This document shows, piece by piece, positions 29,313-33,595 of a stretch of 40,277 bases of DNA. The position numbers and the translations under genes were made by a program. The first letter of the stretch is position 1. Each line of letters starts with the position of its first letter. The DNA comes from Bdellovibrionia bacterium. Lineage in GTDB: Bacteria > Bdellovibrionota > Bdellovibrionia > Bdellovibrionales > UBA1609. The stretch lies in NCBI GenBank assembly GCA_030432925.1, contig JAUILT010000017.1, positions 1 to 40,277 on the forward strand. The letters run 5' to 3'. Under the pieces are notes generated by a model. That model did not search any database and was not told where the DNA came from. It worked only from the letters and a program-made list of their open reading frames with translations.

Positions 29313-29587
29313 ACTCTTAATTTTTTTTAAAGAATGCTGAGCGGGTTCGACGAAGTATATACAGTGAGCTGGACGGTGTCGAATGGACCGAAGCCATGAA
29401 AACGGTGTTTACACCGTGACTGATTCCCAAATTAAAATCAGCAGCAAGAGACTGCTTAATCGTTACTATAAAAACTACCGACACTCTAAGTACACTCTCA
29501 GTTTTAATTCCAATGGAGAGCTCGAGTCTATCGAGGCCGACATCAAAGAGAAGTGGCCATTTCCTCAGAGCATTTGGAGTGACTTCG
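29313..29587 (+). pseudogene. Frameshifted gene remnant left of the IS3 remnant
   Basis: After the stop at 29312, readable protein appears in shifting frames: PELLIFF at a T8 run, then KNAERVRRSIYSELDGVEWT (29330-29389), then ENGVYTVTDSQIKISSK and SKYTLSFNSNGELESIEAD up to about 29580. Each piece has normal protein composition and they follow one another, as in a gene broken by indels in homopolymer runs. It then ends where the transposase sequence begins. Sequencing error in the C4 and T8 runs is an alternative. Confidence 0.4.
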
Positions 29588-29872
29588 ATGATATTCAATG
29601 TCTCCCATGGAGCTATTACCTCGTATATTAAGAAGTATAAGTCACTAGATAAGAAGGCCCATAAAAAGGCAACCCGAACCAAGCATCAAGAAAAAATTGA
29701 AGACTATCGACATGAAGCTGAAATCAAGAATTTGAAGCATGAAATTGCAAACCTCTATCTTGAAAACGTTCTTTTAAAAAAAGCATTGGAACTCTCTCAA
29801 CAGACGAAAAAAGAAGATTCATCCGTGATCACATCAAAGAGTTTGGAACAATCGCAAACGGATGCCGAATAA
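29588..29872 (+). CDS. IS3 transposase OrfA, N-terminally truncated
   Basis: 94 residues from the ATG at 29588. VSHGAITSYIKKYKS is the recognition end of a helix-turn-helix, followed by a basic linker and a leucine-zipper helix IKNLKHEIANLYLENVLLKK typical of OrfA. The frame runs on upstream without OrfA-like sequence. At 29776-29782 there is A AAA AAA in the OrfA frame, a slippery heptamer; a -1 shift there gives an uninterrupted reading (TDEKRRFIRDHIKEFGTIAN) into OrfB, the IS3 way of making the OrfAB transposase. Confidence 0.65.
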   Translation: MIFNVSHGAITSYIKKYKSLDKKAHKKATRTKHQEKIEDYRHEAEIKNLKHEIANLYLENVLLKKALELSQQTKKEDSSVITSKSLEQSQTDAE

Positions 29873-30708
29873 TGGGAGTCGTAAAGTCGACATTCTATTA
29901 TAAAACAGAAGATAAGGATGAGCGTATAGAGAGTGACCTTGAGCTAAGAGATGAGATTGAGAAGATACATGTAGATTTACCTGGATATGGTTATCGCAGA
30001 ATAAGAGAAGATTTGCTTAAAAGGGGCAAAAGAGTTAATTCTAAGCGCATTAGGAGGGTTATGAAAGAGTACTCTCTTCATTCATGTATTAGAAAGCTCA
30101 TGAAGCCCAGAGGAACTCATACTCCAGTAAAGCTTTATTACCCTAATCTCATAAGAGGTTATCAGATAAATGGTCCCAACCAAGTTTGGGCCACTGATCT
30201 AACATATATCAGACTTATGAATGAGTATGTTTATTTAAATGCTATCATTGATGTTTACACCCGAAAAATCATTGGCTGGTCTCTTTCGAGAGATCTCAGT
30301 CATAAGTTTTGCTTAATGGCCCTAGATATTGCAATCGAAGCTTGTGGGCCACCAAAAGGGTGCCTCCATCACTCTGATCGAGGAGTCCAGTATACGTGTG
30401 AAAAATATATTAGTCGTCTCTTAGAATACGGTTTTGAGGTCTCTCAATCGAGATTAGCAACGCCGCAGGATAATGCTTATATTGAATCATTTTTTAAGAC
30501 ACTCAAAAAAGAGGAGGTTTATTTTAAGAAGTATAAAACGATGGCAGATATAAAAAATAACTTGCCACAGTTTATTGATGAAATTTATAGCAAGAAGAGA
30601 CTCCACTCAAGTCTAGGGTATAAAACCCCTGAAGAGTTTGAGAGTGAAGTCTTGAATATGAAACCCGCTAGTCGCCCAGTTCAGAAGTTATGGGGATGGA
30701 AAGTCTAG
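29872..30708 (+). CDS. IS3 transposase OrfB (DDE integrase core)
   Basis: 278 residues in the -1 frame relative to OrfA, the ATG overlapping the OrfA stop (TAATG). It has an HTH_21-like start (LPGYGYRRIREDLLKRGKRV) and the rve core with catalytic D in WATDLTY, D in HHSDRGVQY and E in AYIESFFKTLK, followed by KRLHSSLGYKTPEEFE. The frame upstream of the ATG is open back to the slippery site, so the functional product is probably OrfAB. The catalytic triad is intact. Confidence 0.93.
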   Translation: MGVVKSTFYYKTEDKDERIESDLELRDEIEKIHVDLPGYGYRRIREDLLKRGKRVNSKRIRRVMKEYSLHSCIRKLMKPRGTHTPVKLYYPNLIRGYQINGPNQVWATDLTYIRLMNEYVYLNAIIDVYTRKIIGWSLSRDLSHKFCLMALDIAIEACGPPKGCLHHSDRGVQYTCEKYISRLLEYGFEVSQSRLATPQDNAYIESFFKTLKKEEVYFKKYKTMADIKNNLPQFIDEIYSKKRLHSSLGYKTPEEFESEVLNMKPASRPVQKLWGWKV

Positions 30709-30785: not shown

Positions 30786-32774
30786 TTAGCCGCCCCTAGG
30801 CACTCGCCACTCAGTTGATCCAGGCTCAACCAACTCTCCCGAGTAAATCCTCACTGTAACTCCTGCCGGGTACCTATAATAGAACCCATCTGAAGCTAAC
30901 AGCACCAAATTTTCTGAACTCTTGAATCTCAGGAATTGATCAAATGTGAACCTTCGAGCTTGCATAACTTGTATCTCTTGACCTTGAAACTCCATTGGAA
31001 CGGCCTCATGAGCATCAAAGCTTAAAAGCTTTCCCTCACTAAATTGTAAATCTCCCTTTTTAGTCTTTACCGAGACTCCAGTTTCCAGCTGATAGACGCC
31101 ATCCACTTCTGTCTCAAACGAGCCACTGTTCACATTAAACTCTGATACGGCGTTTACCGTAATATCGCCATAGTTGAGATTCGTGGGACTCACTAGCTGT
31201 CCATGAACGACAAAGCCGTTGGAATCAATTCCTACCCGGCTGAGTCTTCTGAAAAAATGGGCACCATTGTCTCCACGGACATAGAGTTCAGTGTCTCGTG
31301 AAAGCTGAAAACCAGCGGGGATACCATTTTTATGAAAATGAACAAGTCCGTAAATATCGTATTCAGGAACCCTTTCAATAATCACTTGTTTTCCACGAAT
31401 GTTCAAAATAGTCCCTGACTCGACTGTACCTTCTTTAAGAGTTGCAGTCTCTGTATGAAACTCTAGTCTTCCGCTCTGAAAGTTTATCAACTGCCCATTA
31501 ACGCCGATAGTGCTGTCTTCCTTCGTTGAGAAGTAGAAAGTCTTTCCCCAATCCCAAGCAGCGTTGAAGTAATCAACTCCCCTAATTGTATGACCTCCAA
31601 AATACATGTTTGTGGGGGCAAGTAAGTTCCCCCTTATGACATCTTCATATTCATTAAACCTTAAAGAACTCGTTTCTAAAGCCATTGCCTCAGGCTGGTG
31701 AACGACTCTAAAATTCATGTTATCAGGTGCCTCTAAAACATCTGCGCCGATAATATACGCCATATTGGGCCCGAAAGAGATATCTTGTTTCAATGTTACA
31801 CTTTGACCTTGCAAGGAAACTTCAAGAGGATCAACAAGGTCTCCGTTCAAGAGATTTCCATCTTTATAAAATATAACAAAGCCATCTACTTTCAGAGACT
31901 GTCCGCTATAGACAACTGTGATTGACTCGCCAAATTTTAGCTGAGCATAACTGACATGACCATTATCGTGAAAGCCAATATCATAATTACGGTCAGCATC
32001 GATTTCTAACTTCTTACCCTTATAGTAAAAGAAAACATCTCTTCCAGGAAGGACTTCTGCTTCCTCAGGCATTCCATTTGGATGTCTACGAGTTATGTGT
32101 AAGTCTCTGATATCAATACCTTGATGCAAGCTTTGAAAGGTGAGATCATTTTTGTAGATGTACTCTTGAAAGACAAATGATGTCACAAAAGAAAATTCTC
32201 TGGATGTCACCCAACTGACAAAATCTCTCACCGTAAGAGAGTTTCTGTGCCCTAGATTATAGGCCTCTCTATATACGATTTCATGAATGATCAGACCGGC
32301 CTTATTAGTATTATCCAAAAGATCCCAAAAACTCTGATCAATAAAATACCTTTTATCTGTTCTTCGAATTGGTTCTCTGTGAATAGCGGCTTGTTTTATC
32401 CCGCAGCCATATGGAACACCAATGTGACCACTGTCGGGAATATCAATCAAGTCCATTGGTTCAATTTGAGCTTCATCAAAAAAGACAGACCAAAAATTTC
32501 GGTATCGCTCTCCTCGTTCGGGATCTACTCGGTCAATCCTCTCGAGAAAAATTTCAACTTTCTCAATAACAGATAGGCTTTCCTCTCCCAAATCTATTGT
32601 ATAAGGCCTCCCCATGAATCGTGCCTCGTAAAAGTCGAGTAATTCAATGCTCGTGACTCGACCATTTTCTTTACATTCCAAAACGTCTCCACCGTTGCCG
32701 ATATATTCACCACCAGGAAAAGCCAAAGGGGAAAAAATGAGTCCTAGAAAAATTAATAAAGCCCTAACAACCAC
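30786..32774 (-). CDS. Secreted GNGGD/HExx(x)RE protein with beta-hairpin repeats
   Basis: 662 residues from a GTG with AGGAGGT 5 nt upstream. A signal peptide (1-19) is followed by EYIGNGGDVLEC (G26-C34) and LLDFYEA, then a helical domain with GLIIHEIVYREAYNLGHRNS (H164, E165, R169, E170, H176). The GNGGD...HExxxR(E) layout recurs in exported proteins of Bdellovibrio-type bacteria. HE...H could be a zincin-like metal site, but it is not a strict HExxH. Residues 230-660 are repeated short strand pairs such as VIFYKDGNLLNGDL, VHFHKNGIPAGFQL and FQSGRLEF, like MORN-type surface repeats. It starts 1 nt after the TIGR02147 gene, one operon. Function unknown. Confidence 0.75.
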   Translation of the reverse strand: MVVRALLIFLGLIFSPLAFPGGEYIGNGGDVLECKENGRVTSIELLDFYEARFMGRPYTIDLGEESLSVIEKVEIFLERIDRVDPERGERYRNFWSVFFDEAQIEPMDLIDIPDSGHIGVPYGCGIKQAAIHREPIRRTDKRYFIDQSFWDLLDNTNKAGLIIHEIVYREAYNLGHRNSLTVRDFVSWVTSREFSFVTSFVFQEYIYKNDLTFQSLHQGIDIRDLHITRRHPNGMPEEAEVLPGRDVFFYYKGKKLEIDADRNYDIGFHDNGHVSYAQLKFGESITVVYSGQSLKVDGFVIFYKDGNLLNGDLVDPLEVSLQGQSVTLKQDISFGPNMAYIIGADVLEAPDNMNFRVVHQPEAMALETSSLRFNEYEDVIRGNLLAPTNMYFGGHTIRGVDYFNAAWDWGKTFYFSTKEDSTIGVNGQLINFQSGRLEFHTETATLKEGTVESGTILNIRGKQVIIERVPEYDIYGLVHFHKNGIPAGFQLSRDTELYVRGDNGAHFFRRLSRVGIDSNGFVVHGQLVSPTNLNYGDITVNAVSEFNVNSGSFETEVDGVYQLETGVSVKTKKGDLQFSEGKLLSFDAHEAVPMEFQGQEIQVMQARRFTFDQFLRFKSSENLVLLASDGFYYRYPAGVTVRIYSGELVEPGSTEWRVPRGG

Positions 32775-32775
32775 G

Positions 32776-33504
32776 CTACACCTCCTGTATTTTCTTTGAT
32801 TGGGGGAAAATTTGTATTGATACCGTATAAATTCGATTGGGTTTTTTCTTTTTATCTATGAGTTTTGAAACCTTATCTCTAAAGTCTTCTGAATATTTCT
32901 TTATTAATTCAAATTGATTCTCATCAATTGCAGCCGTGATTGATGAAAACTCTCTTTCGTCAATGGGCGTATTATATAGGCTCTTTTTAGCACGGCTTAG
33001 ATTGCTGGCATGTAGATCTTTAATAATTCTCGAAGGATAACCACTGGATGTTGATACTGAAGAGGATTTCCGTTGAAGGGTATCTCCGTCCAAGTCTATC
33101 AGATTCTCATCAGAGAGGACTTTTAAGATTTTCTCGACAGTCTTTACATCTACCTCCAATACCTTACTGATCCAATTCGGATTAGAGGAGCAGTTTTCTA
33201 TTTCACTAAGGGCCAGTACTGAAAAGTAAGTGGGATCACTGAGTTGGCGGAGCTGATCTTCGGTTAAGAGGTGCCTTGAGTTAAAATCAGATAGCTGCTG
33301 AATCTCCACTTCGGTTATGTTCAGCCTCTTCTTAATCGAATCTATAGATGTCTGTGACAAACCCCGTCTTCCGCTTAAAAAATCAAGAAGGGTCGACCTT
33401 GAAACTCCCAGATCTGTAGCATAGGCCCGCTTAGAATAGCGAGGGTTCCTCGTACTTCGTCTTTGGTATTCCTGGCACAAAAAGTCTCTGATCTTTTCAA
33501 TCAT
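32776..33504 (-). CDS. TIGR02147 family regulator
   Basis: 242 residues. The N-terminus has IRDFLCQEYQRRSTRNPRYS, KRAYATDLGVSRSTLLDFLSGRRGLS (a Cro/C1-like helix-turn-helix) and ITEVEIQQL, then DPTYFSVLALSEIENC, NPNWISKVLEVDVKTVEKIL (a second winged-helix-like part), LQRKSSSVSTSSGYPS and a C-terminal EREFSSITAAIDENQFELIKKY. This matches the TIGR02147 family of Bdellovibrio and Fibrobacter. It is cytoplasmic, with no membrane segment. It is the first gene of the pair and probably controls the secreted partner; nested palindromes lie 59-91 nt upstream. Confidence 0.85.
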   Translation of the reverse strand: MIEKIRDFLCQEYQRRSTRNPRYSKRAYATDLGVSRSTLLDFLSGRRGLSQTSIDSIKKRLNITEVEIQQLSDFNSRHLLTEDQLRQLSDPTYFSVLALSEIENCSSNPNWISKVLEVDVKTVEKILKVLSDENLIDLDGDTLQRKSSSVSTSSGYPSRIIKDLHASNLSRAKKSLYNTPIDEREFSSITAAIDENQFELIKKYSEDFRDKVSKLIDKKKKPNRIYTVSIQIFPQSKKIQEV

Positions 33505-33562: not shown

Positions 33563-33595
33563 ACGCGGTCAAGGTGACCGCGTAGGCTGCGGTCA
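33563..33595. promoter_or_regulatory. Nested palindromes upstream of the TIGR02147 gene
   Basis: ACGCGGTCA (33563-33571), AGG, TGACCGCGT (33575-33583) is a perfect 9-bp inverted repeat. A third GCGGTCA follows at 33589-33595. An overlapping CTTGAC-GCG-GTCAAG offers an alternative pairing. The position 59-91 nt before the ATG suits an operator for the regulator, possibly itself (inference). Confidence 0.55.

What the first reader, a model, noticed from the sequence alone, without database searches (positions are those of the whole stretch)
30786..33504. TIGR02147 regulator coupled to a secreted GNGGD / HE-x3-RE repeat protein
The two genes are 1 nt apart. The secreted partner combines a GNGGD-to-HEIVYRE N-terminal domain, perhaps zincin-like, with about 430 residues of MORN-like strand-pair repeats. 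TIGR02147 regulators are lineage-restricted and their paired exported proteins are uncharacterised.
Basis: partly seen in the sequence, partly recalled or inferred. Interest (0 to 1): 0.6.

Follow-up and report, generated by a model that had tools for sequence, protein, structure and literature searches.

The report
Self-regulated exported metallopeptidase-fold modules in Bdellovibrionota
The two genes are one copy of a module repeated many times in the bacterial-predator phylum Bdellovibrionota: a DNA-binding regulator, usually with its own DNA palindrome, next to an exported protein built like a zinc protease but with an altered metal site, a pairing for which I found no description.

Summary
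A 242-aa TIGR02147/DUF4423 regulator is followed 1 nt later by a 662-aa exported protein with GNGGD and HEIVYRE.

The pairing is not local chance. The exported N-terminal domain (about 190 aa, absent from Pfam, NCBIfam and PDB by sequence) sits beside a TIGR02147 gene in 6/6 own-genome copies, 19/19 named Bdellovibrionota loci and 39/40 further one-per-genome loci. It occurs in 105 of 192 genomes sampled from the phylum.

Its AlphaFold2 model (pLDDT 90, pTM 0.89) weakly but almost exclusively matches zincin metallopeptidases. A related exported family with a true HExxH has the same regulator. In the main family H164 and E165 are invariant but the second zinc histidine is Tyr (92%); S179, R183 and a Cys pair are conserved, and H176 is not. 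So it is zincin-fold with an HE-x2-Y site, and catalysis is unproven.

Palindromes about 60-72 nt upstream of the regulators (23/64 against 5/64 in a control) suggest each regulator controls its own operon. The window has ACGCGGTCA-N3-TGACCGCGT.

I read it as a family of autoregulated export modules, probably envelope- or prey-directed hydrolases. The C-terminal repeats are real but are not Pfam MORN and are dispensable.

The parts
32776..33504 (-). TIGR02147/DUF4423 regulator, 242 aa: N-terminal Xre-like HTH plus DUF4423
   Evidence: PF14394 1.8e-37; TIGR02147 96 bits over cut-off 50; HTH_3 0.00078, below its cut-off
30786..32774 (-). exported 662-aa partner, GTG start, 1 nt after the regulator
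   Evidence: ORF; paralogue on contig C112 88% identical under purifying selection
32712..32774 (-). signal-peptide-like N-terminus (residues 1-21)
   Evidence: hydrophobic core before GNGG in 67 of 72 family members against 1 of 72 at control positions; no SignalP run
32685..32699 (-). GNGGD motif (residues 26-30), a few residues after the presumed cleavage site
   Evidence: invariant G26-D30 in 20-21 named relatives; exact codon-pattern hit
32139..32711 (-). zincin-fold N-domain (residues 22-212)
   Evidence: AF2 pLDDT 90.1, pTM 0.89; structural matches nearly all zincins
32265..32285 (-). HEIVYRE (residues 164-170): H164, E165 invariant, Y168 in place of the second zinc His
   Evidence: 64 pairs: H 1.00, E 1.00, Y 0.92; S179 0.94, R183 0.94
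30789..32105 (-). C-terminal beta-strand-pair repeats (residues about 224-662), accessory
   Evidence: strands at low pLDDT; no Pfam family above cut-off; missing from stand-alone members
33563..33583 (.). candidate operator: perfect 9-bp palindrome ACGCGGTCA-AGG-TGACCGCGT, centred about 69 nt upstream of the regulator ATG
   Evidence: only match in the window at <=2 mismatches, 0 expected; palindromes enriched at this distance across the family

Best explanation
This is one copy of a lineage-specific, repeatedly duplicated module. A cytoplasmic TIGR02147 regulator binds a palindrome of its own about 60-70 nt upstream of its start codon and controls an operon whose second gene (or third, after a lipoprotein) exports a zincin-fold protein to the periplasm or envelope. 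Shown by computation: the pairing, its recurrence and co-inheritance, export signals, the zincin-like fold, the invariant HE and the palindrome enrichment. Inferred: autoregulation, and that the exported protein is a metal-dependent hydrolase with an atypical HE-x2-Y site acting on cell-envelope or prey material, with variable C-terminal domains or the lipoprotein giving anchoring or specificity.
For: Linkage: 6/6 own genome, 19/19 named loci, 39/40 one-per-genome sample. Codon-pattern test in 4 genomes: 13/13 exported GNGGD proteins are beside TIGR02147 against 2/14 other GNGGD occurrences. HExxH sister family: all 12 GNG-type members (11 with GNGG, one with SGNGD) have the regulator directly upstream, the 6 without it do not. 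Regulator and partner distances correlate (Mantel r 0.48, 0 of 5000 permutations). Fold: at least 25 of 29 PDB matches are zincins; HE of the HExxH family aligns on HE here (profile P 1.6e-4 local). Palindromes >=8 bp in 23/64 upstream regions against 5/64 inside genes. Other TIGR02147 genes sit beside subtilases, so exported proteases recur as neighbours.
Against: All structural matches are weak (VIA Z at most 4.5; Foldseek prob at most 0.38). The second zinc histidine is absent, so the protein may be a binding pseudoenzyme. Metal-site geometry was not examined. About two thirds of upstream regions show no perfect palindrome of 8 bp or more. Three of 15 own-genome regulators (L003, L011, L014) have no exported partner detected. 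Regulator and partner distances may correlate partly through the species tree.
Confidence: 0.6

Rival explanations
1. The exported domain is a pseudo-zincin: the fold and the HE pair are kept for structure or ligand binding and it does not catalyse, serving as an adhesin or scaffold in the envelope.
For: Second zinc His replaced by Tyr in 92% of pairs; stand-alone domains travel with a conserved lipoprotein; large beta-repeat C-terminal parts in several members.
Against: H164 and E165 are invariant over 64 divergent pairs, together with Y168, S179, R183, D114; pseudoenzymes usually lose such residues. A sister family keeps the full HExxH.
Confidence: 0.4
2. An ImmR/ImmA- or DdrO/IrrE-like switch: the zincin cleaves its neighbouring HTH regulator to derepress the operon.
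For: Xre-like HTH gene next to a zincin-fold gene; IrrE is among the structural matches (Z 2.3).
Against: The partner carries an export signal in 67 of 72 members and a conserved Cys pair (97-98%), so it should act outside the cytoplasm where the regulator is.
Confidence: 0.06
3. Feedback signalling: the leader or GNGGD-bearing mature N-terminus of the exported protein, rather than its enzyme part, is read by the regulator system (export sensing or peptide pheromone).
For: GNGGD/GNGG, not the catalytic type, predicts TIGR02147 linkage: 13/13 exported against 2/14 other GNGGD; HExxH relatives lacking it lack the regulator; the one unlinked member in the sample of 40 has LNGGD.
Against: GNGGD also lies in the folded domain just before strand 1, so fold constraint and common descent may explain it; no receptor or importer was identified.
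Confidence: 0.12
4. Chance neighbours or a local duplication without functional link.
For: The pair is duplicated in the genome (C112) and lies next to an IS element.
Against: Near-universal linkage across the phylum and purifying selection on both genes.
Confidence: 0.01

Closest known systems
TIGR02147 (Fsuc_second) / DUF4423 PF14394 regulators
   Same: The regulator is a clear member.
   Different: No paper holding the term TIGR02147 was found and only one for DUF4423; it lists Bd3700, a DUF4423 protein upregulated during growth in prey (PMC12546842). The exported zincin-fold partner is not described in the passages read.
Minigluzincins and selecase (abylysin, jannalysin, selecase)
   Same: Best structural matches of the N-domain: selecase 4qhf Z 4.5, 90 aligned, rmsd 3.5; 4jiu and 4jix Z 3.8.
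   Different: They are HExxH peptidases (own knowledge); here HE-x2-Y, exported, an added N-terminal beta hairpin with GNGGD, a conserved Cys pair and variable C-terminal domains. No sequence match in the PDB.
PF18894 putative phage metallopeptidase
   Same: Sub-threshold matches over the HE region in family member L006 and in the HExxH sister L007 (E 0.002 and 0.043), and in two of the 20 named relatives.
   Different: Below the curated cut-off; the window protein itself does not match.
ImmR/ImmA and DdrO/IrrE operons (own knowledge)
   Same: HTH regulator gene adjacent to a zincin-fold gene.
   Different: Here the zincin-fold protein is exported and lacks HExxH.

Membership tests
TIGR02147 / DUF4423 | Curated profile score over cut-off | tested here: met
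   96 bits against 50; PF14394 129 bits against 30
Zincin fold | Zincin alpha/beta fold with active-site helix carrying HE | tested here: met
   Model pLDDT 90; matches almost exclusively zincins of about ten families, but all Z <= 4.5, so the support is from uniformity and not from any single score
Zincin metallopeptidase | HExxH zinc-binding motif | tested here: not met
   HEIVY in the window protein; HE-x2-Y in 92% of 64 pairs. Met only in the sister family
Zincin metallopeptidase | Third metal ligand and a bound metal | not testable with these tools
   No coordinates or metal data; H176 is not conserved
MORN repeats | Match to the MORN profile | tested here: not met
   No MORN hit in Pfam at E <= 1
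ImmA/IrrE-type regulator-cleaving zincin | Cytoplasmic zincin acting on the adjacent HTH protein | tested here: not met
   Export signal in 67 of 72 members
GNGGD-HExxY module described here | GNGGD after a signal peptide, Cys pair, HE-x2-Y...S-x3-R, TIGR02147 neighbour | tested here: met

The most novel reading that the evidence does not exclude
Bdellovibrionota use TIGR02147 regulators as dedicated partners of exported proteins marked by a GNGGD-type mature N-terminus, whatever the enzyme behind it. The N-terminal tag (or its leader) is part of a feedback circuit by which the cell senses export or fate of each effector and sets its expression.
Probability: 0.12. Interest if true: 0.85.

Novelty: new variant of a known kind. 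Interest (0 to 1): 0.62.

Why it matters
Predatory bacteria of this phylum carry many uncharacterised regulators (about 15 TIGR02147 genes in this genome, about 40 in one relative) and many uncharacterised exported proteins. This ties the two sets together, gives the exported proteins a fold and an invariant candidate active site, and gives many of the regulators a candidate operator. Both halves become directly testable in a laboratory strain. If the HE-x2-Y site is active it would be an unusual zincin active site.

Tried and rejected
H176 as ligand: rejected, not conserved. MORN: no profile match. C1q and UBact hits: below cut-off, ignored. Full-length model: the C-terminal part is too poor (pLDDT <55), and its fold-search list is dominated by unrelated beta structures. 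PDB by sequence: nothing. BFVD fold search: no match better than E 0.2, though two of the better-scoring named matches are metallopeptidase or SprT-like. A sigma-70-type promoter scan upstream found only a match at the chance level. Literature: no paper on TIGR02147, nothing relevant for GNGGD. Raw counts of the GNGGD codon pattern are not above the reversed-pattern control; only the N-terminal, exported subset is informative.

Full report
What is there. On the minus strand, a 242-aa regulator (32776-33504) is followed after one base by a 662-aa exported protein (30786-32774). The regulator is a TIGR02147/DUF4423 protein over curated cut-offs. The partner matches no Pfam, NCBIfam or PHROG family above cut-off and no PDB sequence. 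A second, diverged copy of the pair lies on contig C112: partner 88% and regulator 90% identical, dN/dS 0.07 in the N-domain and about 0.19 in the C-part and in the regulator, so both genes are under purifying selection.

The neighbourhood recurs. The genome has 15 TIGR02147 genes; 12 have an exported protein directly next to them or one gene away. I built a profile of the partner's N-domain and searched with it alone, without reference to the regulator. Own genome: 6/6 hits beside a TIGR02147 gene, one of them divergently. Phylum sample: 105 of 192 genomes have the domain and 172 of 192 have TIGR02147. I picked 40 listed hits, one per genome and over a range of scores: 36 have the regulator upstream in the same direction (6 with one gene between), 2 divergent, 1 downstream, 1 none. 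The single unlinked member has LNGGD instead of GNGGD. With about 15-40 regulators per genome, chance adjacency would be a few per cent.

The motif predicts the link. I searched four genomes for the codon pattern of GNGGD. Of 27 hits, 13 fall just after a signal peptide and all 13 lie beside a TIGR02147 gene; of the other 14, two have one in the fetched stretch (hypergeometric about 5e-6 by hand). Four of the 13 belong to families other than the main domain or the HExxH class as defined by my profiles. A related exported family with a genuine HExxH (own genome L007, L009 and others) shows the same: all 12 members with a GNG-type motif (11 with GNGG; L158 has SGNGD) have the regulator directly upstream, the 6 without it do not.

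Two architectures. The domain is either fused to a variable C-terminal part (beta repeats in the window protein, L025, L026, L029, L031; unrelated sequences elsewhere) or stands alone (about 203-224 aa). In 15 such loci the stand-alone form follows a lipoprotein of about 220 aa, all mutually similar. The repeats are therefore accessory.

The fold. AlphaFold2 on 20 aligned relatives gave the N-domain at pLDDT 90.1, pTM 0.89. Foldseek against the PDB is weak (best E 0.2) but its first four rows are zincin-fold proteins. The second alignment lists 29 entries with Z >= 2 from 466 chains, at least 25 of them zincins by my reading of the titles: selecase (Z 4.5), abylysin, jannalysin, a zincin-like protein 3e11, anthrax lethal factor, SprT-type, LTA4 hydrolase, BlaR1, YbeY, MATCAP, IrrE. 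Each score alone would be unconvincing; the uniformity is the evidence. Profile comparison with the HExxH family puts HE on HE (local P 1.6e-4, global 1.4e-5 for a single comparison; probability only 50-58%).

The active site. Over 64 regulator-partner pairs H164 and E165 are invariant, D114 1.00, D47 0.98, C34/C124 0.98/0.97, Q128, S179 and R183 0.94, Y168 0.92 (the set was filtered for GNGG/GGGG and for HE somewhere in the protein, so the figures for those two motifs are partly by construction). In the unfiltered named alignment GNGGD, C34, D47, D114, C124 and Q128 are invariant and H164, E165, S179, R183 at least 90%. The second zinc ligand of HExxH is Tyr. Whether a metal binds is open.

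Regulation. Perfect inverted repeats with arms >= 8 occur upstream of 23 of 64 regulators paired with the main domain, against 5 of 64 in a control stretch inside the gene. Many centres lie 60-72 nt before the start codon, with different sequences in different loci and a shared TGTTTCA...TGAAACA in several, mostly lipoprotein-type operons. The window has ACGCGGTCA-AGG-TGACCGCGT at 33563-33583, unique in the window and largely kept upstream of the C112 copy. This suggests autoregulation by a dimeric HTH protein; activator or repressor is unknown. Regulator and partner distances correlate (Mantel r 0.48, 0 of 5000 permutations).

Reading. The exported proteins next to TIGR02147 genes include zincin-fold proteins of two kinds, and two TIGR02147 genes sit next to subtilases. 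I conclude that the pair is an autoregulated module for an exported, probably hydrolytic, envelope or prey-directed protein. The only literature link found is that one DUF4423 protein (Bd3700) rises during growth inside prey (PMC12546842). Export, fold and linkage are well supported; catalysis, substrate and the direction of regulation are inferred.

Noticed in passing
window 29513-30708 (+): An IS3-type transposase pair ends 78 bp from the stop of the exported gene, converging on it. The gene is not truncated: its C112 copy has nearly the same length.
   Followed up: partly
L004 2283-2951 and 14 other loci: Conserved lipoprotein of about 220 aa (often SCAS..PG) between regulator and the stand-alone GNGGD domain; no Pfam family above cut-off.
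   Followed up: partly
L002 545-2813; L123 2524-3402: TIGR02147 genes next to subtilase (S8) genes; in L123 a small exported GNGQIGS protein is divergent, in L002 a 161-aa exported protein follows.
   Followed up: no
L121, L122, L123, L125: Exported proteins with GNGxxGS or GPGQIGS near the mature N-terminus beside TIGR02147 genes in one relative; possibly a variant of the GNGGD signature.
   Followed up: no
L016 1438-1830: Truncated TIGR02147 gene (130 aa, HTH part only) followed by an integrase-like and transposase-like ORF; probably a pseudogene.
   Followed up: no
L106 3526-4260 (-): A domain copy with LNGGD, without a TIGR02147 neighbour; a nearby ORF looks like an ECF sigma factor.
   Followed up: partly
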